From assembly GCA_030615745.1 (NCBI GenBank), contig JAUWYR010000047.1, positions 1-19,782 on the forward strand: a stretch of 19,782 nt of DNA. The letters run 5' to 3'. The DNA is from Candidatus Zixiibacteriota bacterium. Lineage in GTDB: Bacteria > Zixibacteria > MSB-5A5 > SM23-73-2. The notes beneath the pieces are model-generated. The model saw nothing but the letters and a program-made list of their open reading frames with translations, was not told the origin of the DNA and made no database searches. Of the stretch, positions 3,714 to 15,963 are shown in pieces. The translations under genes were made by a program, and so were the position numbers. Numbering within the stretch: the stretch's first letter is position 1; every line of letters starts with the position of its first letter.

Positions 3714-3750
3714 TTTCTTGAGCGTGAGGAGTAGCTCCTGACGCAACATC
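3714..3750. repeat. 37-bp palindromic repeat, copy 1
   Basis: This copy is identical at 36 of 37 positions to 4568-4604. Its core is an inverted repeat with 10-base arms (3722-3731 and 3735-3744) around TAG. This copy carries the one difference, which makes a mismatch in the stem. It lies between secA and the orphan gene at 3845-4525; the other copy is on that gene's far side, in the same orientation. Confidence 0.85.
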
Positions 3751-3844
3751 TAAAGATGAAAAAACTCACAGAGCATCCTCCAGACAGATTTTGACTTTGG
3801 TCAACAGAAGGTCTTTATAACCATCCGGCAATTTTTGTAGTTTC

Positions 3845-4525
3845 TTAAGTGCTTAGTATCATTTCTTCCAGTTTCTGAAGATGTTTTTCTCCGCTCTCTA
3901 AATCCCTTTTATCTATAAGTTCGAAACTCTTGCAAAAATAATGAAATAGAACATTAAAATAATACTGCGAAAGCAATAGAGATTCTTTTACATAATTAAG
4001 GTTTGGCCCTATATCAAAAAGTAAATTTTCTTGTGATTCAGAAATTCTTGGTAAAACACCCCTATAGTTCGGATGAACAACTTTAGAAAGATCTTTATAC
4101 CATTTATCATAGTGCCTCTCCATTTTTGCAAGCTCTGCCCTCTTCTTAATCTGCGAATGATCTTTTTTCCTTAGTGCTTTAGAATAATCCTCCTGATTTT
4201 CTAAAAACATTTTGCATAAAATATTATTCTCTTTTTCTAAATACTTTAACTCGATTACATTATCCAATAGGGCTCTCACAAGAATACCAGCTTCCAGTCC
4301 GAATCCATAATTACATAGGTAATGAACTGATGCAAATAATGCGACTGACCTGGTAAAAAGAGTCTGCACAACTCCTTTGAAATCCGAGTCCAGTTTGATT
4401 CCCTTTTGCTCAAAGATATTTAATACATTATTTACCTCATTAATTAGTGCTAAGTTGCACTCGAATAAATCTTTATACTTTGCATAAGCTGTATTTTGCA
4501 CAATAAATTCATTCTTAGCTATCAT
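3845..4525 (-). CDS. DUF5677-like hypothetical protein
   Basis: The function is unknown. The 226-residue protein is probably soluble and almost entirely helical. It has a conserved-looking block RALLDNVIELKYL at 84-96 (R84 and E92 standing out) and LSKVVHPNYRGV at 146-157. This arrangement resembles the DUF5677 family, whose members are often called HEPN-like; I infer this from pattern only. The ATG at 4525 has a weak purine stretch (AAGAAAG) upstream. The gene stands alone between secA and recR, bracketed by two copies of a 37-bp palindromic repeat, and looks like an accessory insertion. No partner toxin, antitoxin or nuclease gene lies beside it. Confidence 0.7.
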   Translation of the reverse strand: MIAKNEFIVQNTAYAKYKDLFECNLALINEVNNVLNIFEQKGIKLDSDFKGVVQTLFTRSVALFASVHYLCNYGFGLEAGILVRALLDNVIELKYLEKENNILCKMFLENQEDYSKALRKKDHSQIKKRAELAKMERHYDKWYKDLSKVVHPNYRGVLPRISESQENLLFDIGPNLNYVKESLLLSQYYFNVLFHYFCKSFELIDKRDLESGEKHLQKLEEMILST

Positions 4526-4567: not shown

Positions 4568-4604
4568 TTTCTTGAGCGTCAGGAGTAGCTCCTGACGCAA
4601 CATC
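4568..4604. repeat. 37-bp palindromic repeat, copy 2
   Basis: This copy has a perfect stem: 10-base arms at 4576-4585 and 4589-4598 around TAG. It matches copy 1 at 3714-3750 except for one base. It lies just upstream of the orphan gene's start, and so both copies flank that gene as direct repeats 854 bases apart. Confidence 0.85.
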
Positions 4605-4615
4605 GAAAAAGGATT

Positions 4616-4796: not shown

Positions 4797-5396
4797 CTAA
4801 AACTCCACTCTCCCCTCAATGGCATTAGCCAATGTGTTCACATCCGCATATTCCAATGCACCGCCAGAAGGTAGCCCTCTTGCTATTCGGGTGACTTTTA
4901 TCCCCAGGGGCTTGATCAATTTAGCTAAATAAATGGCTGTTGCTTCCCCCTCTGTGGATGGATTTGTAGCTAAAATTACCTCTTTTACTCCCTTTTGTTT
5001 TAATCTATTTAAAAGCTCTTTTATCTTCAAATCCTCAGGACCTATGTTATCCAGAGGGGATAGAACCCCGCCTAAGACATGGTAGGCTCCATTATATTGC
5101 CCGGTCTTCTCCACAGCCAGAACATCCTTAGATTCCTCAACAACGCATATCAAAGACCTATCCCTTTTTTTGTCAGCACAGATTTTACAAGGGTCCTTCT
5201 CGGTTATATTAAAGCACAAAGAACAATATCTTATCTTCTCCTTAACATCCATTATCGCCTGAGCCAAGTTTTCAGCCTCCTCTTTTTTGATTCTCAAAAC
5301 ATGAAAAGCAAGTCTCTGGGCAGTTTTTTTGCCTATCCCGGGAAGCTTGTTGAACTCCTCGATCAATCGGTCTATGGAATCAGCCAACTTTACCAC
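4797..5396 (-). CDS. recR: Recombination mediator protein RecR
   Basis: RecR works with RecO (and RecF) to load RecA on SSB-coated single-stranded DNA at gaps. The 199-residue protein has the family's usual length and order: helix-hairpin-helix LPGIGKKTAQRLAFH at 18-32, a four-cysteine zinc finger (C58, C61, C70, C73), and a Toprim domain from about 81 to 175 with EE at 87-88. The annotated start is GTG, two bases after the stop of the KAP gene, so translation is probably coupled. The GTG has no well-spaced SD. TTG at codon 4 (5387-5385) has AAGGGTGG just upstream and is a credible alternative start. The gene closes the SRP RNA-dnaX-ybaB-recR block. Confidence 0.97.
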   Translation of the reverse strand: MVKLADSIDRLIEEFNKLPGIGKKTAQRLAFHVLRIKKEEAENLAQAIMDVKEKIRYCSLCFNITEKDPCKICADKKRDRSLICVVEESKDVLAVEKTGQYNGAYHVLGGVLSPLDNIGPEDLKIKELLNRLKQKGVKEVILATNPSTEGEATAIYLAKLIKPLGIKVTRIARGLPSGGALEYADVNTLANAIEGRVEF

Positions 5397-5398
5397 CC

Positions 5399-8300
5399 TT
5401 ATTCTTTTTTGTTAGAGTCTGAACTTGTGAACTTCTCAAATGCTTTCCATTCTTTCCAATTTTTGTTTACTCTTGGCTCAAGTTCTCGAATTGCATCTAA
5501 AGCCTGGTCTCTTATCTTCCGCGATAGTTTATCATCTTTAGCTACGCCGATGAAATCAGCCAAACACTCTTTAATGTCTTTATTATCTAACACCTTTAGT
5601 TTAGTTATATAGAATGATTTCACCTTCTGAAGCAAATCGTCATCCACAACCAAACTCCTAAGCTTAGTTTTCAATGAGAGCAACGTGCCTTCATCCACTA
5701 TATCTTGATTTTCTAAGATTACGTCGAAAGCTACATCCCCGTATGAAATGGCCCTAATTTCTTCTGATAAGTATTGGGCAATATTATTGACTATTGTCTT
5801 AACAGCATCGTCCGTTAATATATGCTTAATCCTATTAAAATTCGTCTTAATTAATCTTTTCCGAGCTACACCTGCTGATTTCAAAAAATTTAAGGTTAGT
5901 TTAGTTATTTTACGATCCGTGAAATCGCGGTCATTACATTTCTCTGAAAAAAGCAAAATAGAATCCAAAAAACTGTTAATCGTTTCAAAATCTTCTGGTT
6001 CATCGTTAAAACGATCTATCTCCTCTATTAGTATGTCAATAGTTTCTTTTTCTAGTCCCCTTTTTACAATCTTCTCTGCATAACGATTTACATAGATCAA
6101 ACCAACATTGAATAACGGACTTTCAGACTCTCGCATCAGAGGGAAAACTATATGATTGCAAAAATAGTTTATGTTTGATCCATAATATTCTTCATATAAC
6201 ATGTCTTGAATTTTATCCTTTTCATCAACAGCCTTCTTTTCATATTCTCCAGTTTTTAGATAGATTTTTGTCATAAATGCAATCAGGTCTGCGTAGTCTC
6301 TAACTTTTTTAGATTCTTTTAGTTCACGTAAAATCTCATTATATGATTCTGGTTCATGCCCTATAAGATGTGTTAATTTACTTTTGATTTGTTTCTGCCT
6401 ACTATTATTAGATACTGGGTATAAAGCGACGTATAGACCAGAAACTATTTTAAAGGCTTTTGGCTGCGGTTGTGTCGGTTCTATTAATGTCTGAATTGAA
6501 TGTAACACATCTAATAAGGGGTCTATGAGATCTTTAGGAATTTCAAATCTTACCTTATCCAAATTTTCTATTGCGAATCTTTTTGGTTCATCATAAGTGT
6601 TTGCAGTTTCACCTTTAAGCATTTCAACCATCTTAGAAACAAGATGCTTGTTTTTCGACTTTATCGGCATGATAGAGTTCAAGTTCAGGTATAAATCTAT
6701 CAGTTCTTGGTTTACTGGTGAGCGTTTACTAACAATAGAACCTTGTAATTTATCTTCCATAAATTTTAAAGTCAAAAATTTAGGGGCTACTTGTTTTATA
6801 TCTTCCTTAGAAAGAAAATCAACTATCTCTTTTTTGAAATCATCGAATTTATCTTCGAAAAATACCCCGACATTATGCGCAGCATCACCTGTGATTATTT
6901 TATTATTTGTAAATAAAACTTGGAGTTTCTCTGAGGGGAAAATCTCAGATTCAGGGAGTTTTCTCGTAAACTCGCGAAGAATAGATTGTAAGTTTCTATT
7001 ATTGGATTCGACTTTTATAAATAAATCAAAGCACTTAAGATCAAGCGAATGAACACAATCGATTAAGTGGTCCTGATCAAGGTAAGAGCACACCTCTTCT
7101 GAAAATGATGTTGTGATCTCTTTGGGTACATAATCAAGAATAGTCATCGTTGAGTCGAATATATTTATAAATCTTTCCTTAGCCTGTTCCTCTCTCATTG
7201 TCATTTTGACTATTTCAAGATAATTTTCAATTTTTTGAGCATCTTTCTTAGCATCTTCAAATATGTCTGTCAGTTCATTCACTCTCCTATATATTAATGA
7301 ATCCTTAATTTTTTTGCTCTCTGGAATTGTAACATCTAATGGGTCTTGATTAAAGCGTATAAAAAGTTCTATGTTCTCATTTTGTATAGTCTTAGTTGCT
7401 TGCAAAAATCTTTTTAACTCTTTGTTTTTTGTGGAAATACTTATAGCTTCTTTCGATCCTTCCGGCAATGTGAAAAAGGTTCTATTTTCTATAGCTTCAA
7501 TTGAGGTTTTATACACTGTTGCATCTTTTTGAATTTCTTCATGGAAATCAGGCCATTGCTCCTTTAATACCATCAATTTTGCCAAAAAGTCGATGTTTTC
7601 GGTGATAACATTGGGTGCTATCTTCTTCTTTATCTCAAACATTCTTGCTACATAGTGTTTTACCGTTAAATTATTAAGTATTTGCTTAATCCTCCGGGGA
7701 CTGTCTACAAACCCCTGCGTAATTACGTGGATAATTTCTCTCCTTTTTGGATGGTTCTGTAGGCTCGTTTGATCTATTAGGATTTCTGCATAAGATTTTA
7801 TATCAGAATAAATCAAAGGATGAATTTCTATTGAGGTCTGAAATACCTTTCTTATGAATTCATCAGGATCTGCAGTTTTATCTTCTTTTGGGTATAACTG
7901 GTTTTTAAGATGTTTTCTAATTGCTTCTGGGTCACAAGGGATAATGTACACACAATCTTTTTCACCTAAGAATGTATTAATCCCTCGAAGCGTTTTAATA
8001 ACTGTTTCGCTATCACACCGATCGAGATTGTCAAAAATTATCAACAATTTCTTATGTATACCTCTTAGGTCTTTCATAACCTTGTTCTTAAATAGATCTT
8101 CAAATTGTTCAGGTGATGTAGGTTTTTCAACACTTTTAGTTACAGTTGTTGTCTTTGTTAATCTTTCTAAGCTTGCAAGTAGTGCAAATATTGCAGGCAA
8201 TACGAGATGCACTATATATTCATATGGATCAAACGCCGTTTTAAATATTATAACTTTCGACATTAAAGCTGCGAAAAGTACTAAAGATAAAAGAACAAAG

Positions 8301-8728
8301 ATTCTTCCAAACTTTTCCCAATTAATTTCATGTTTTGTCACATCTTGAAAGTGGTGCGTGCTGTATAGGCTGTCTTTGAAATTTTTATACTTCTTCTTTT
8401 CCCGTAAAATTTTCTCATCGATTTCTATTAGTAGTTGTCGCCTCAGAGTATCGTCTGCATGTTTCCATACATCGAAATACACTACTTCATATTTACTATC
8501 TGGATCGTTTTTTATTTCTTCCTTCAGAATTCTTGCTATCCCCGTTTTCCCAGTCCCCCATTTACCGAACAAACCGATGCAAAAAGGAGTGGGTGCATTT
8601 TTTACGATGTCTTTCAAGACATCTACATAATACTGATGGTGAAACTCATCCTCTTCTCTGGATTGAATTTCTCTTTCACTTATTAGCCTAATGCCTTCTA
8701 ATTCTTTTTTATTCTCTTTTAACTCCAT
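5399..8728 (-). CDS. KAP-family P-loop NTPase, membrane-anchored
   Basis: This is a 1109-residue STAND-like P-loop NTPase of the KAP family, whose bacterial members include PifA and QatA, both linked to phage exclusion. Walker A is GKWGTGKT at 55-62 and Walker B is LLIIFDNLDR at 228-237 (D233, D236). Two predicted membrane segments (about 143-163 and 170-188) lie between them, the typical KAP layout. The KIIPCD-like strand (YIIPCDPEAI, 261-270) and the arginine-rich SPRRIKQILNNL region follow. From about 400 on the protein is helical and repeat-like without a domain I can name. The ATG has AAGGGG about 6 bases upstream. It sits between ybaB and recR, with 133 bases before it and 2 after it. 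No qatBCD or nuclease partner is visible. A defence role is inference only. Confidence 0.85.
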   Translation of the reverse strand: MELKENKKELEGIRLISEREIQSREEDEFHHQYYVDVLKDIVKNAPTPFCIGLFGKWGTGKTGIARILKEEIKNDPDSKYEVVYFDVWKHADDTLRRQLLIEIDEKILREKKKYKNFKDSLYSTHHFQDVTKHEINWEKFGRIFVLLSLVLFAALMSKVIIFKTAFDPYEYIVHLVLPAIFALLASLERLTKTTTVTKSVEKPTSPEQFEDLFKNKVMKDLRGIHKKLLIIFDNLDRCDSETVIKTLRGINTFLGEKDCVYIIPCDPEAIRKHLKNQLYPKEDKTADPDEFIRKVFQTSIEIHPLIYSDIKSYAEILIDQTSLQNHPKRREIIHVITQGFVDSPRRIKQILNNLTVKHYVARMFEIKKKIAPNVITENIDFLAKLMVLKEQWPDFHEEIQKDATVYKTSIEAIENRTFFTLPEGSKEAISISTKNKELKRFLQATKTIQNENIELFIRFNQDPLDVTIPESKKIKDSLIYRRVNELTDIFEDAKKDAQKIENYLEIVKMTMREEQAKERFINIFDSTMTILDYVPKEITTSFSEEVCSYLDQDHLIDCVHSLDLKCFDLFIKVESNNRNLQSILREFTRKLPESEIFPSEKLQVLFTNNKIITGDAAHNVGVFFEDKFDDFKKEIVDFLSKEDIKQVAPKFLTLKFMEDKLQGSIVSKRSPVNQELIDLYLNLNSIMPIKSKNKHLVSKMVEMLKGETANTYDEPKRFAIENLDKVRFEIPKDLIDPLLDVLHSIQTLIEPTQPQPKAFKIVSGLYVALYPVSNNSRQKQIKSKLTHLIGHEPESYNEILRELKESKKVRDYADLIAFMTKIYLKTGEYEKKAVDEKDKIQDMLYEEYYGSNINYFCNHIVFPLMRESESPLFNVGLIYVNRYAEKIVKRGLEKETIDILIEEIDRFNDEPEDFETINSFLDSILLFSEKCNDRDFTDRKITKLTLNFLKSAGVARKRLIKTNFNRIKHILTDDAVKTIVNNIAQYLSEEIRAISYGDVAFDVILENQDIVDEGTLLSLKTKLRSLVVDDDLLQKVKSFYITKLKVLDNKDIKECLADFIGVAKDDKLSRKIRDQALDAIRELEPRVNKNWKEWKAFEKFTSSDSNKKE

Positions 8729-8808
8729 TTCTACCCCTTGGTTGTTTCATTTTTAAGGTTCTGCTACAAAAGTTGTTTTTAATCTCCTGAAATATTGAAT
8801 TTTTGTAC

Positions 8809-8826
8809 GCACGGATTTATCCGTGC
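8809..8826. repeat. Hairpin between ybaB and the KAP gene
   Basis: A perfect 7-bp stem GCACGGA / TCCGTGC closes a TTTA loop. It lies in the 133-base gap between ybaB and the KAP NTPase, so it would be in the shared minus-strand transcript. It has no T-run, so it is more likely a dispersed intergenic hairpin or processing site than a terminator. Confidence 0.7.
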
Positions 8827-8861
8827 TTAAATTAATTCAGCTAAAACCTGTGCCTTCTAAT

Positions 8862-9179
8862 CTAAAAAGGAAACCCCGGTATCCTCAGTCCTCCGGTGAG
8901 CTTCGCCATGTTCTCCATCTGAAGTTGTTGAGCTTTTTCTCTGGCTTGATTGACCGCGGAAACAACTAAATCCTCAAGCATCTCGATATCATCCGGATTA
9001 ACCACCTCAGGGTCTATCTTTATCTCCAGTATCTCCTGCTTACCATTAGCAATGACTGTGACCATACCTCCACCAGCGGTTCCTTCAACCCTTTTCCCCT
9101 CAAGCTCTTTTTGAATCTCTTCTATTTTTTCTTGAACCTTTTGCATCTGTTTCATTAAATTTCCAAAACCTTTAGGCAT
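8862..9179 (-). CDS. ybaB: YbaB/EbfC family nucleoid-associated protein
   Basis: This small dimeric DNA-binding protein is encoded between dnaX and recR in most bacteria. The 105-residue protein has the usual length. It begins with the [23 protein letters not shown] coiled-coil helix (5-27), followed by the beta-strand core with [25 protein letters not shown] (37-61) and a C-terminal helix. AGGAGG is 5 bases before the ATG, fixing the start. It lies 19 bases after dnaX. Its exact role is unsettled in the family; in this context it accompanies replication and recombination genes. Confidence 0.95.
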
Positions 9180-9198: not shown

Positions 9199-10872
9199 TT
9201 ATTCTTCTGTTATCTCACCCTCGAAATTCTCCAAAAGGCTTTTTATCAAAGGATCCTTTTGTATTATTTTCTCTTTGTCAAAATTGCTTTTTATCCTTGG
9301 ATTCTTTGAAGGAGCATTTTTAGTGGTATCGAGGGTGAACTTAATCGGAACAGACGATCCGTACACCTGTTCCAATGCCTTTTGAACCAGCTTAAAATTA
9401 TCTTTTTTCTCTAACTGCTGTTTATGAAACTGCCTGCCATTATAAAACAAAAGATTGATAAATCCATCTTCAAATGAGGCCAACTTTCCCTCAACCAGAC
9501 AGGGCCATAAAGAGACCTTAGATTTTTTCACCCACTCTAATACGTGTTCCCAACCAGATTTAATATCATCCAAATTCAGGCTCGAAGAGCTTTTCTGGCT
9601 TAATTCTTCAGTCAAATTAGATAAATCCGCTTTTTTAGACGAAAAACCATTTTTTTCCAACTTTTCTATGTGCCTGTCTTTACTTTTATTTTCAGATTCC
9701 TTTTTTAGGCCACCTGAAAAGAGGTAGTCCAATTTATGGATTACATCCTCCAACAAAACGTTTTTTTCCATCTTGATCATCTTCATTAATGCTATCTCCA
9801 GATGAACCCTTGGCTCAGAGGTTCTTTTCAAGATATAAGCTGAATCAGCTACTATATTTATCATCCTCAAAATATCTGTATCTGAGAATTTTTCCGATTC
9901 CTTTTTGTATTTTTCTATGTATTCTTTCGACAGGTCAAAAAGTCTTTGTTCTGCCTGAGTTTCAAAAGAGCCTTTTTGGACTTTAGCTATTAGAAGGTTT
10001 CTCAAGTGGTCTAAAAATCCTTTTGCGAAATCCTGGATATCGACCCCTGAATCGATTAGTTGAGAAAGAAGGGCAAGTCCTTTTTGCGCATCTTTTTTTG
10101 CAATTATATCAGTTAGCTCAAATAGGGTTTGTTGATCCACAATACCTAAAATTTTCTCCACAACTTCCTTTTCAATCTCTTTGCCTCCATAGGCGATCAC
10201 CTGGTCTAAAAGGGACAATGCATCCCTCACGCTTCCATCAGCTTTTCGAGCCAGGATAAATACCGCATCCTCTTTTATTTTTATCTTCTCCTTCAAAGCG
10301 ATTTTTTCAATAGTCATAACCAGATCAGAAAAAGGGACTCTTCTGAAGTCAAATCTCTGACACCTTGAAAGAATCGTAGGCGGAATCTCGTGCGGTTCAG
10401 TAGTAGCGAAGACAAAGACCACATTTTTGGGTGGCTCCTCGATTGTTTTCAAAAGCGCATCAAAAGCTGAGGGAGATAGCATCTGGACTTCATCTATTAT
10501 ATAGATTTTATACTTTCCCCGAACAGGAGAATATTTTACCCCCTCAATTATAAGCTCCCTTATATCATCCACTTTACTTTTCGAGGCGGCATCCATCTCG
10601 AAGACATCAATGCTTTTGCCCAAGTTTATCTCCTTGCAGGAATCGCAGATATTACAGGGGATAGGGGTTATTCCTTCAGCACAATTTAAGGACTTAGCCA
10701 AAATTCGGGCAGTAGTGGTTTTCCCTGTTCCCCTCGGTCCTGCAAAAAGGTAGGAGTGTGCTATTCTTTTAGACTTTATGGCATTGATTAGGGTAATAGT
10801 AATATGGTCTTGACCCACGATCTCTTCAAAAACCTGAGGTCTGTATTTCAAAGCCATCACCAGATAACTCAT
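9199..10872 (-). CDS. dnaX: DNA polymerase III subunit tau/gamma DnaX
   Basis: DnaX is the AAA+ clamp-loader subunit that loads the sliding clamp and, in its tau form, links the polymerase to the helicase. Numbered from the ATG chosen here (557 residues), Walker A is GPRGTGKT at 45-52, the zinc module uses C64, C73, C76 and C79, Walker B is IIDEVQM at 125-131, and the SRC motif is at 169-171. I start at the ATG at 10872, not the in-frame TTG at 10899. AAGGAG and AGGAG lie 9 and 4 bases before the ATG, and this SD region falls inside the longer frame. A run of seven A near codons 405-407 could allow a shorter gamma-like product. The gene heads the dnaX-ybaB-(KAP)-recR operon, directly after the SRP RNA. 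Confidence 0.95.
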   Translation of the reverse strand: MSYLVMALKYRPQVFEEIVGQDHITITLINAIKSKRIAHSYLFAGPRGTGKTTTARILAKSLNCAEGITPIPCNICDSCKEINLGKSIDVFEMDAASKSKVDDIRELIIEGVKYSPVRGKYKIYIIDEVQMLSPSAFDALLKTIEEPPKNVVFVFATTEPHEIPPTILSRCQRFDFRRVPFSDLVMTIEKIALKEKIKIKEDAVFILARKADGSVRDALSLLDQVIAYGGKEIEKEVVEKILGIVDQQTLFELTDIIAKKDAQKGLALLSQLIDSGVDIQDFAKGFLDHLRNLLIAKVQKGSFETQAEQRLFDLSKEYIEKYKKESEKFSDTDILRMINIVADSAYILKRTSEPRVHLEIALMKMIKMEKNVLLEDVIHKLDYLFSGGLKKESENKSKDRHIEKLEKNGFSSKKADLSNLTEELSQKSSSSLNLDDIKSGWEHVLEWVKKSKVSLWPCLVEGKLASFEDGFINLLFYNGRQFHKQQLEKKDNFKLVQKALEQVYGSSVPIKFTLDTTKNAPSKNPRIKSNFDKEKIIQKDPLIKSLLENFEGEITEE

Positions 10873-10887
10873 TTTACTCCTCTCCTT
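10873..10887 (-). promoter_or_regulatory. Double SD that decides the dnaX start
   Basis: On the minus strand AAGGAG (10887-10882) and AGGAGT (10881-10876) stand in tandem before ATG (10872-10870). This favours the ATG over the TTG 27 bases upstream, whose reading frame runs through these sites. Confidence 0.75.
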
Positions 10888-10918
10888 ACTATTTACCAAA
10901 AGCTAACAACCATCTACC

Positions 10919-10938: not shown

Positions 10939-11215
10939 TCTCTCGTGCACCCACCCTCGATTTCTGCTCTTCGAAGGGTCTGAGGTAGCCAACTCCTGCC
11001 AGGCTCACCTGCATCACACCCAAGAACCGCTTACCGCTGCTACCTTCCGGTCCTGACGGGGTTGGGCGGTCTTGAAGTTGCGCAGGACCTGACCATCAAC
11101 ATCGCTTGCCAAAGACCTTATCCGAAAAACCCAAAACCTCAGGCGGGGATTCGACCCCGGTATAGCGGATTCCGGGCTACAGGGCACCGCTAGCTCCCCA
11201 TCTAGCACGAGAGAA
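10938..11215 (-). ncRNA. ffs: Signal recognition particle RNA, large bacterial form (scRNA/6S type)
   Basis: The SRP RNA binds Ffh and targets nascent membrane proteins. On the minus strand the domain IV core GTCAGGACCGGAAGGTAGC lies at 11057-11039, with GGAAG and the asymmetric-loop AGCAG in canonical order. The 5' part contains GTGCTAGATGGGGAGCTAGC followed by GGTGCCCTGTA, the Alu-domain signature of Bacillus-type RNA. The ends pair: TTCTCTCGTGC (10938-10948, plus) with GCACGAGAGAA (11205-11215) gives an 11-bp closing stem, so the length is about 278 bases. Its place just upstream of dnaX matches scr-dnaX-yaaK-recR of B. subtilis. Exact ends are inferred from the closing stem. Confidence 0.93.
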
Positions 11216-11276: not shown

Positions 11277-11645
11277 TTACTTTATAGAATTAATCAGTGC
11301 GCTGACAGATTTTGCCAATCTCAAACAATTCTTGTGTAGCATCTCAAATTGGTCATCTGCCAGATATCTATTTTCTAAAGCTATACTAAGAATAGGTATA
11401 CATTCATAAAGGGAACCTCTTGATTTTCTCAGAAAATTCTTAAATTCCGTCTTGGTCAAACTGCTCCCTTCTGCAATATTTAAAGGAACAAAAGATGCTG
11501 CTCTCCTGAGTTGTGAAGTGATTCCAAAGATCTCATCTTTAGGAAATTTTTTGGTCAATTTATAGATCTTCTTTGAAAAATTCAAAGAATCCTGATAAAC
11601 CCTCAGTTTCTCAAAACTGAAAATTTCTTTAGAATCTTTTACCAT
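11277..11645 (-). CDS. Four-helix-bundle protein of the 23S rRNA intervening-sequence family
   Basis: This is a 122-residue member of the S23/IVP family, small pentameric four-helix-bundle proteins first found in inserts in 23S rRNA genes and often present as free-standing genes. It has the signature FEKLRVYQ near 11, then FPKDEIFGITSQLRRAASFVPLNIAEG, with RRAA and NIAEG as the most conserved parts. I take ATG (11645) as the start because GGTGG lies 7 bases upstream; two TTG codons precede it in frame. It lies between the SRP RNA and tRNA-Ala, not within an rRNA gene. The molecular role is unknown. Confidence 0.88.
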   Translation of the reverse strand: MVKDSKEIFSFEKLRVYQDSLNFSKKIYKLTKKFPKDEIFGITSQLRRAASFVPLNIAEGSSLTKTEFKNFLRKSRGSLYECIPILSIALENRYLADDQFEMLHKNCLRLAKSVSALINSIK

Positions 11646-11671
11646 CAACAATCCACCAACTACTAACCACT

Positions 11672-15579: not shown

Positions 15580-15963
15580 ATGGAAATTAAGGAAATAAGC
15601 CAAAAACTCGAAGAAAATAACAACAATATTGCACAATTGAGCACCTCATTCGATACTCTGAAAACAAGCTTAACAAACATAAAATCTTCGGTCGATTCTA
15701 TAAAGATTATGGTGAAAGAGTTACTTACCCAAAGGGAGATTAATCTTGGGAGTCAAAACCCCAATATGCCTATACCTCTGAAAGCTGTGGAGAAACCATA
15801 TGGGTTAAAATATGATCCCGGTATCCTTGCAAAAGAGTTGAACCCACATTATGTGGTGCTGTATGCTGACTCGCCTCAATTATTTTTGAGGATTAAAACT
15901 GTTGAATCATCCACCCTCAAGCAAATGAGAAAGCTAATAAAAGCTTATGCCCCCACAAAATGA
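15580..15963 (+). CDS. Hypothetical protein, coiled coil with C-terminal domain
   Basis: The function is not recognised. From the first ATG it is 127 residues. Residues 1-45 form a likely coiled coil (KEISQKLEENNNNIAQL, then SFDTLKTSL), followed by a linker and a compact C-terminal part with KYDPGILAKELNPHYVVLY. The SD before this ATG is poor. The same frame is open back to 15382 without ATG, GTG or TTG. That extra part encodes LIPKILSILSVVYLLYQSFLP and INLCLFLLLFSGVPLP, both membrane-like, so the real protein probably starts at 15327 through a frameshift. The gene is one of two plus-strand genes in the window and shares its terminator with the OmpA gene. Confidence 0.55.
   Translation: MEIKEISQKLEENNNNIAQLSTSFDTLKTSLTNIKSSVDSIKIMVKELLTQREINLGSQNPNMPIPLKAVEKPYGLKYDPGILAKELNPHYVVLYADSPQLFLRIKTVESSTLKQMRKLIKAYAPTK

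What the first reader, a model, noticed from the sequence alone, without database searches (positions are those of the whole stretch)
5399..8728. KAP NTPase set inside the conserved SRP RNA-dnaX-ybaB-recR block
The order SRP RNA, dnaX, ybaB, recR is conserved from B. subtilis outward (seen here, established elsewhere). A 3.3-kb gene for a membrane-anchored KAP P-loop NTPase lies between ybaB and recR, with 2 bases between its stop and the recR start, so RecR translation may depend on it. KAP proteins such as PifA and QatA act in phage exclusion. Coupling such a sensor-like NTPase to the recombination mediator could be a repair-linked defence, or a lineage-specific replication partner anchored at the membrane.
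Basis: partly seen in the sequence, partly recalled or inferred. Interest (0 to 1): 0.62.

Follow-up and report, generated by a model that had tools for sequence, protein, structure and literature searches.

The report
Defence-type KAP ATPase inserted before recR
A gene for a large membrane-anchored ATPase, of a family whose studied members fight phages, has been dropped between two housekeeping DNA-repair genes in one bacterial species; it is most likely a newly acquired defence gene and not a partner of the repair protein RecR.

Summary
In detail: an intact 1109-aa KAP NTPase gene (5399-8728, minus) lies between ybaB and recR in the SRP RNA-dnaX-ybaB-recR block. The proposed link to RecR is not supported. 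The same-genus genome has ybaB and recR 77 nt apart with no KAP gene. Of 94 genomes of the phylum where the spacer could be read, 92 have the two genes less than 250 nt apart. The only other filled spacer, in the same order, holds a BglII-type restriction-modification pair. The KAP gene is low in G+C, and its homologues are scattered over many bacterial phyla, archaea and haloarchaeal plasmids. None of the 80 homologue loci fetched shows recR in the DNA held, while restriction-modification genes, integrases and resolvases are common neighbours, unlike in control stretches of the same genomes. The model shows an AAA+ domain most like RdrA of RADAR, a membrane hairpin inside it, and a C-terminal helical solenoid. 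Best reading: a horizontally acquired, single-gene anti-phage ATPase like Tmn, QatA and PifA, parked in a spacer that takes cargo. A new member of a known kind. The mildly interesting part is that this spacer received two unrelated defence cassettes within one order.

The parts
5399..8728 (-). KAP-family P-loop NTPase, 1109 aa: AAA+ domain (about residues 32-370) with a two-helix membrane hairpin inside it (143-190) and a C-terminal all-helical solenoid (about 440-1105); GC 33.2%, GC3 29.8%
8729..8861 (-). spacer between ybaB and the KAP gene, 133 nt, with an 18-nt palindrome GCACGGATAAATCCGTGC (8809-8826); three further places in the genome match this stretch over 24-27 nt
5385..5401 (-). junction: KAP stop TAA (5401-5399), AGGGTGG ribosome-binding-like motif, likely native recR start TTG (5387-5385)
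4797..5396 (-). recR, complete (TIGR00615, 276.5 bits)
8862..9179 (-). ybaB/ebfC, upstream neighbour of the insertion
3845..4525 (-). DUF5677 gene, a second accessory gene on the other side of recR, also absent from the same-genus relative; GC 32.0%, GC3 29.1%
9199..10899 (-). dnaX, conserved block
10943..11210 (-). large bacterial SRP RNA, conserved block

Best explanation
The gene is a horizontally acquired, single-gene anti-phage ATPase of the KAP family, inserted between ybaB and recR in this species and expressed from the dnaX-recR transcription unit. The protein probably forms a ring of AAA+ subunits, held at the inner membrane by the helical hairpin that each subunit carries inside its ATPase domain, with a long C-terminal helical solenoid as sensor or adaptor. 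On infection, a phage DNA or protein ligand bound by the solenoid or ring would trigger ATP-driven remodelling that stops the phage or harms the membrane or cell. Shown here: gene, domains, membrane hairpin (predicted), empty site in relatives, scatter of the family, restriction-modification-rich neighbourhoods. Inferred: ring, ligand, effect, co-transcription, any phage phenotype. No functional tie to RecR is proposed.
For: Empty site in the same genus and ybaB-recR within 250 nt in 92 relatives. GC3 0.298 against 0.43-0.44 in ybaB and recR. Patchy family: 20 of 132 genomes of the phylum. Homologues of about 1000-1150 aa in many bacterial phyla, archaea and haloarchaeal plasmids; in the tree the window gene does not group with the two long homologues of its own phylum. 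Neighbours within 5 kb of 39 homologue loci are rich in restriction-modification genes, integrases and resolvases; 128 control proteins from the same host genomes hit 55 PADLOC families against 411 and 338 for two sets of 128 neighbours (Pfam control). PADLOC models QatA, PDC-S20 and PifA all match. Best solved fold match of residues 13-452 is RdrA of the RADAR defence system, Z 19.6, 4.5 A over 313 residues. The same spacer in G010 holds a BglII-type restriction-modification pair. Tmn is a KAP NTPase with two membrane segments that stops phages (PMC11846954); QatA binds DNA and assembles as a heptamer or octamer (PMC13279940).
Against: No phage assay known to me exists for this subfamily. The NCBIfam QatA equivalog cut-off is missed by far (91.6 against 600 bits), and no qatBCD genes are beside it. 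No integrase or other mobility gene is in the window, so the means of insertion is unknown. The C-terminal model has moderate confidence (pTM 0.45-0.46) and no specific structural match. Only two genomes represent the genus. The neighbourhood control is small, and only the 25 commonest families per set are listed.
Confidence: 0.74

Rival explanations
1. A repair-linked defence: the KAP ATPase senses foreign or damaged DNA at the membrane and acts with RecR (RecFOR) on it, their genes being kept together for joint expression.
For: Same strand, 11 nt between KAP stop and likely recR start, no terminator-like site between them on that strand. QatA, a KAP relative, binds single- and double-stranded DNA (PMC13279940).
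Against: The arrangement exists in this one genome only: absent in the same genus, in 92 relatives and in all homologue loci fetched from other phyla. recR was found in 21 of 22 bacterial host genomes of long homologues, but not in the DNA held around the KAP gene.
Confidence: 0.06
2. The ybaB-recR spacer is a cargo slot in this order: defence cassettes insert there repeatedly because they are read with the housekeeping unit and do no harm. The KAP gene is one such cargo and the BglII-type pair of G010 another. (This refines the best explanation; it does not exclude it.)
For: Two of 94 readable genomes have genes in the slot, both in this order, and the contents are unrelated (KAP NTPase; N6/N4 methylase plus BglII-family endonuclease). 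Order members have longer spacers (46-241 nt), several with palindromic repeats.
Against: Two events are few. recR was found in seven other genomes of the order besides G010 and the window's genus-mate is an eighth empty case. No shared attachment site or recombinase was identified.
Confidence: 0.3
3. An old chromosomal gene with a housekeeping membrane function that the same-genus relative has lost.
For: Intact open frame with conserved NTPase motifs; only two genomes of the genus are available.
Against: All other relatives read here lack it at this place, the gene's base composition differs from its neighbours, and the family is scattered and in part plasmid-borne.
Confidence: 0.06
4. Assembly artefact: a foreign contig joined into the recR block.
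For: The genome is a 74-contig draft.
Against: Both flanks are the organism's own genes, recR is most like that of the same-genus genome, and the KAP frame is intact to within 11 nt of the likely recR start.
Confidence: 0.03

Closest known systems
Tmn (single-gene KAP-family transmembrane NTPase defence; PMC11846954)
   Same: KAP NTPase with two membrane segments; acts as one gene
   Different: No Tmn sequence was compared here; the length and C-terminal part of Tmn were not checked; no PADLOC or NCBIfam model named Tmn was among the hits
QatA of qatABCD (PMC13279940)
   Same: KAP NTPase domain; PADLOC QatA models match (75 bits) and NCBIfam QatA matches weakly (91.6 bits)
   Different: Far below the NCBIfam equivalog cut-off of 600 bits; the models are 593-646 positions long, the protein has 1109 residues; no qatB, qatC or qatD beside it
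PifA of F-type plasmids
   Same: KAP NTPase domain (PADLOC PifA model, 57 bits over residues 16-356)
   Different: The match stops at the NTPase domain; the rest of the PifA model is not matched
RdrA of RADAR (PMC9994260)
   Same: Best structural match of residues 13-452 (Z 19.6); AAA+ ring ATPase with a helical insertion in the ATPase domain and a helical C-terminus
   Different: The insertion in RdrA is a crown that docks RdrB, here a predicted membrane hairpin; no rdrB deaminase gene in the window
PDC-S20 (PADLOC phage defence candidate)
   Same: One model matches over residues 25-507, nearly its whole length (17-459 of 464), 59.5 bits
   Different: The window protein has about 600 further C-terminal residues; PDC-S20 has no tested function known to me

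Membership tests
KAP-family P-loop NTPase (PF07693) | P-loop domain over the curated cut-off, with Walker A and B | tested here: met
   107.2 bits against 20; GLFGKWGTGKT and LLIIFDNLDR; invariant columns kept across 33 homologues
KAP-family P-loop NTPase (PF07693) | Membrane helices inserted within the NTPase domain (in part of the family) | tested here: met
   Hydrophobic stretches 143-161 and 172-190 between Walker A and B, helices 137-163 and 168-188 in the model
QatA (qatABCD) | NCBIfam QatA equivalog cut-off (600 bits) | tested here: not met
   91.6 bits
QatA (qatABCD) | Adjacent qatB, qatC, qatD | tested here: not met
   The neighbours are recR, ybaB, DUF5677, secA and dnaX
PifA | Match over the whole PifA model | tested here: not met
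   Only model positions 6-315 of 720 matched
Tmn | Sequence similarity to TmnA over its whole length | not tested
   No TmnA sequence or named model was used; the paper gives two membrane segments and the KAP family
Tmn | Anti-phage activity of the single gene | not testable with these tools
   Needs plaque assays
RADAR (RdrA) | AAA+ fold like RdrA | tested here: met
   Z 19.6 over residues 13-452; a shared fold, not proof of membership
RADAR (RdrA) | Adjacent rdrB adenosine deaminase | tested here: not met
   No such gene among the neighbours scanned
RecR-linked gene of a conserved operon | Linkage to recR kept across genomes | tested here: not met
   92 relatives without it; no recR in the homologue loci

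The most novel reading that the evidence does not exclude
The ybaB-recR spacer is a lineage-specific cargo slot in which unrelated defence cassettes (here a KAP ATPase, in G010 a BglII-type restriction-modification pair) are inserted and read with the dnaX-recR unit, with no recombinase nearby: a small defence hotspot inside a housekeeping block.
Probability: 0.3. Interest if true: 0.45.

Novelty: new member of a known kind. Interest (0 to 1): 0.3.

Why it matters
It shows how a striking position next to a recombination gene can arise from cargo insertion, not partnership. It also points to a long (about 1100-aa), membrane-anchored KAP subfamily shared by bacteria and archaea, surrounded by restriction-modification genes and apparently untested, and to a housekeeping spacer that has taken defence genes at least twice within one order.

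Tried and rejected
Single-sequence scan of genome contigs gave no relative; the six-sequence alignment gave 80. Phages: no match; viral contigs: 3 weak relatives. The dnaX hit near a KAP homologue in L103 was looked at as possible linkage: the KAP gene there has a serine recombinase as neighbour and genes that look (by eye) like a cytosine methyltransferase and phage terminase, and no ybaB or recR was found. G032 has a KAP gene about 4 kb from recR: it is PifA-like, frame-broken, directly 3' of the SRP RNA, and not found in the recR region of its sister G052, so it is a separate event. By my estimate, finding one more KAP gene within 10 kb of recR among 23 has odds of about 0.15, so it is no sign of linkage. 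Sequence search of solved structures gave nothing useful. The C-terminal model matches only general helical-repeat proteins such as the PP2A scaffold and AP-2. The Aravind 2004 KAP paper is not held.

Full report
Observation. On the minus strand the window reads SRP RNA (10943-11210), dnaX (9199-10899), ybaB (8862-9179), a 1109-aa KAP NTPase gene (5399-8728), recR (4797-5396), a DUF5677 gene (3845-4525) and secA. The KAP frame is intact and scores 107.2 bits with PF07693. The two-base gap depends on the GTG at 5396; the same-genus RecR starts at the codon that aligns with the TTG at 5387, which has AGGGTGG five bases before it, so the likely gap is 11 nt with a separate ribosome-binding-like motif. 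No terminator-like site lies between the genes on that strand.

Is it an ancient operon member? No. The only other genome of the genus held, G001, has the SRP RNA-dnaX-ybaB-recR-secA order with 77 nt between ybaB and recR and neither the KAP nor the DUF5677 gene. I read the ybaB-recR spacer in the other genomes of the phylum where both genes lie in the fetched stretch: 92 different genomes have less than 250 nt between them (108 loci, 16 of them repeats of a genome), and one, G010, has genes in between. Three stretches ended too soon or lacked ybaB (L188, L230, and L229 = G014, where recR has other genes upstream). The KAP gene has GC3 0.298 against 0.43-0.44 for ybaB and recR.

The same slot in G010. 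In this genome of the same order the slot holds two genes: an N6/N4 DNA methylase (PF01555, 192.5 bits) and a BglII-family restriction endonuclease (PF09195, 67.7 bits). So the only two filled slots seen hold a defence-type ATPase and a restriction-modification pair. Spacers in the order are 46-241 nt and several carry palindromic repeats; the spacer before the KAP gene carries one too.

The family. In the phylum 24 KAP genes are found in 20 of 132 genomes; apart from the window only one lies near recR, a frame-broken PifA-like gene in G032, 3' of the SRP RNA. Outside, an alignment-based scan gave 80 loci from many bacterial phyla and from archaea, and tblastn gave three haloarchaeal plasmid genes of 1093-1108 aa, two of them with integrase, HNH or restriction endonuclease genes close by. 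None of these loci has recR or ybaB in the DNA held; several are short contigs, so absence there is weaker evidence. In 21 of 22 bacterial host genomes recR was found. A tree of the NTPase part does not group the window gene with the two long homologues of its own phylum, and mixes bacteria and archaea; support near the window branch is modest.

Neighbourhoods. I took genes within 5 kb of 39 long homologues (256 proteins in two sets of 128). Restriction-modification families lead the tallies: N6_Mtase 8, N6_N4_Mtase 5, Eco57I 5, ResIII 5, Methylase_S 4, with 5 phage integrases and 2 resolvases. A control of 128 proteins from arbitrary stretches of the same host genomes gave 55 PADLOC families against 411 and 338, and none of these restriction-modification or integrase families among those with two or more members. 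Control stretches were chosen by contig number, not at random in a strict sense; they cover bacterial hosts only; and only the commonest 25 families are printed.

Structure. AlphaFold2 on 33 homologues (mean pLDDT 76.6, pTM 0.45) gives an AAA+ domain, helices 137-163 and 168-188 that coincide with the hydrophobic stretches, and a C-terminal all-helical solenoid. Residues 13-452 match the RdrA ring of RADAR best (Z 19.6), then Orc1/Cdc6 (Z about 16) and TnsC (Z 13.8). In RdrA a helical insertion in the AAA+ domain forms the crown that docks RdrB (PMC9994260); here the insertion is a predicted membrane hairpin. That the two insertions sit at the same place is my reading, not computed. The C-terminal part, folded alone, resembles general helical-repeat proteins only.

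Mechanism. By analogy with Tmn, a KAP NTPase with two membrane segments that blocks phages (PMC11846954), and QatA, which binds DNA and forms seven- or eight-membered complexes (PMC13279940), I propose a membrane-anchored ring ATPase that senses infection through its solenoid or DNA and then blocks the phage or harms the cell. Ring, trigger and effect are inferred.

Verdict. Observation confirmed; the RecR coupling is not supported; the defence reading is the best one, untested. New member of a known kind, interest 0.3.

Noticed in passing
window 3845-4525 (minus), repeats at 3714-3759 and 4568-4613: A DUF5677 gene between recR and secA is absent from the same-genus relative, low in G+C, and flanked by two 46-nt copies (91% alike) of a palindromic repeat that has about 30 matching places in the genome.
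   Followed up: partly
L054:8380-10125 (G000:C56) and L055 (G001:C11): A second KAP NTPase (581 aa, with pentapeptide repeats) lies between what look like mutS plus a four-helix-bundle gene and mutL; the mutS-bundle-KAP order is shared by both genomes of the genus.
   Followed up: partly
L167:8910-10369 (G010): A BglII-type restriction-modification pair sits exactly between ybaB and recR in another genome of the order.
   Followed up: yes
L165:11835-14166 (G032): A frame-broken PifA-like KAP gene starts 49 nt after the SRP RNA gene; it was not seen in the recR region of the sister genome G052.
   Followed up: partly
L103:2759-11270: A long KAP homologue beside a serine recombinase lies about 4 kb from a dnaX-like gene in an uncultured bacterium.
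   Followed up: partly
window 11277-11651 (minus): A 23S rRNA-intervening-sequence-type four-helix-bundle gene lies between the SRP RNA and a tRNA-Ala; a similar gene is at the same place in G001.
   Followed up: no
window 15580-15963 (plus): A lone coiled-coil-like small protein on the plus strand with no clear family.
   Followed up: no
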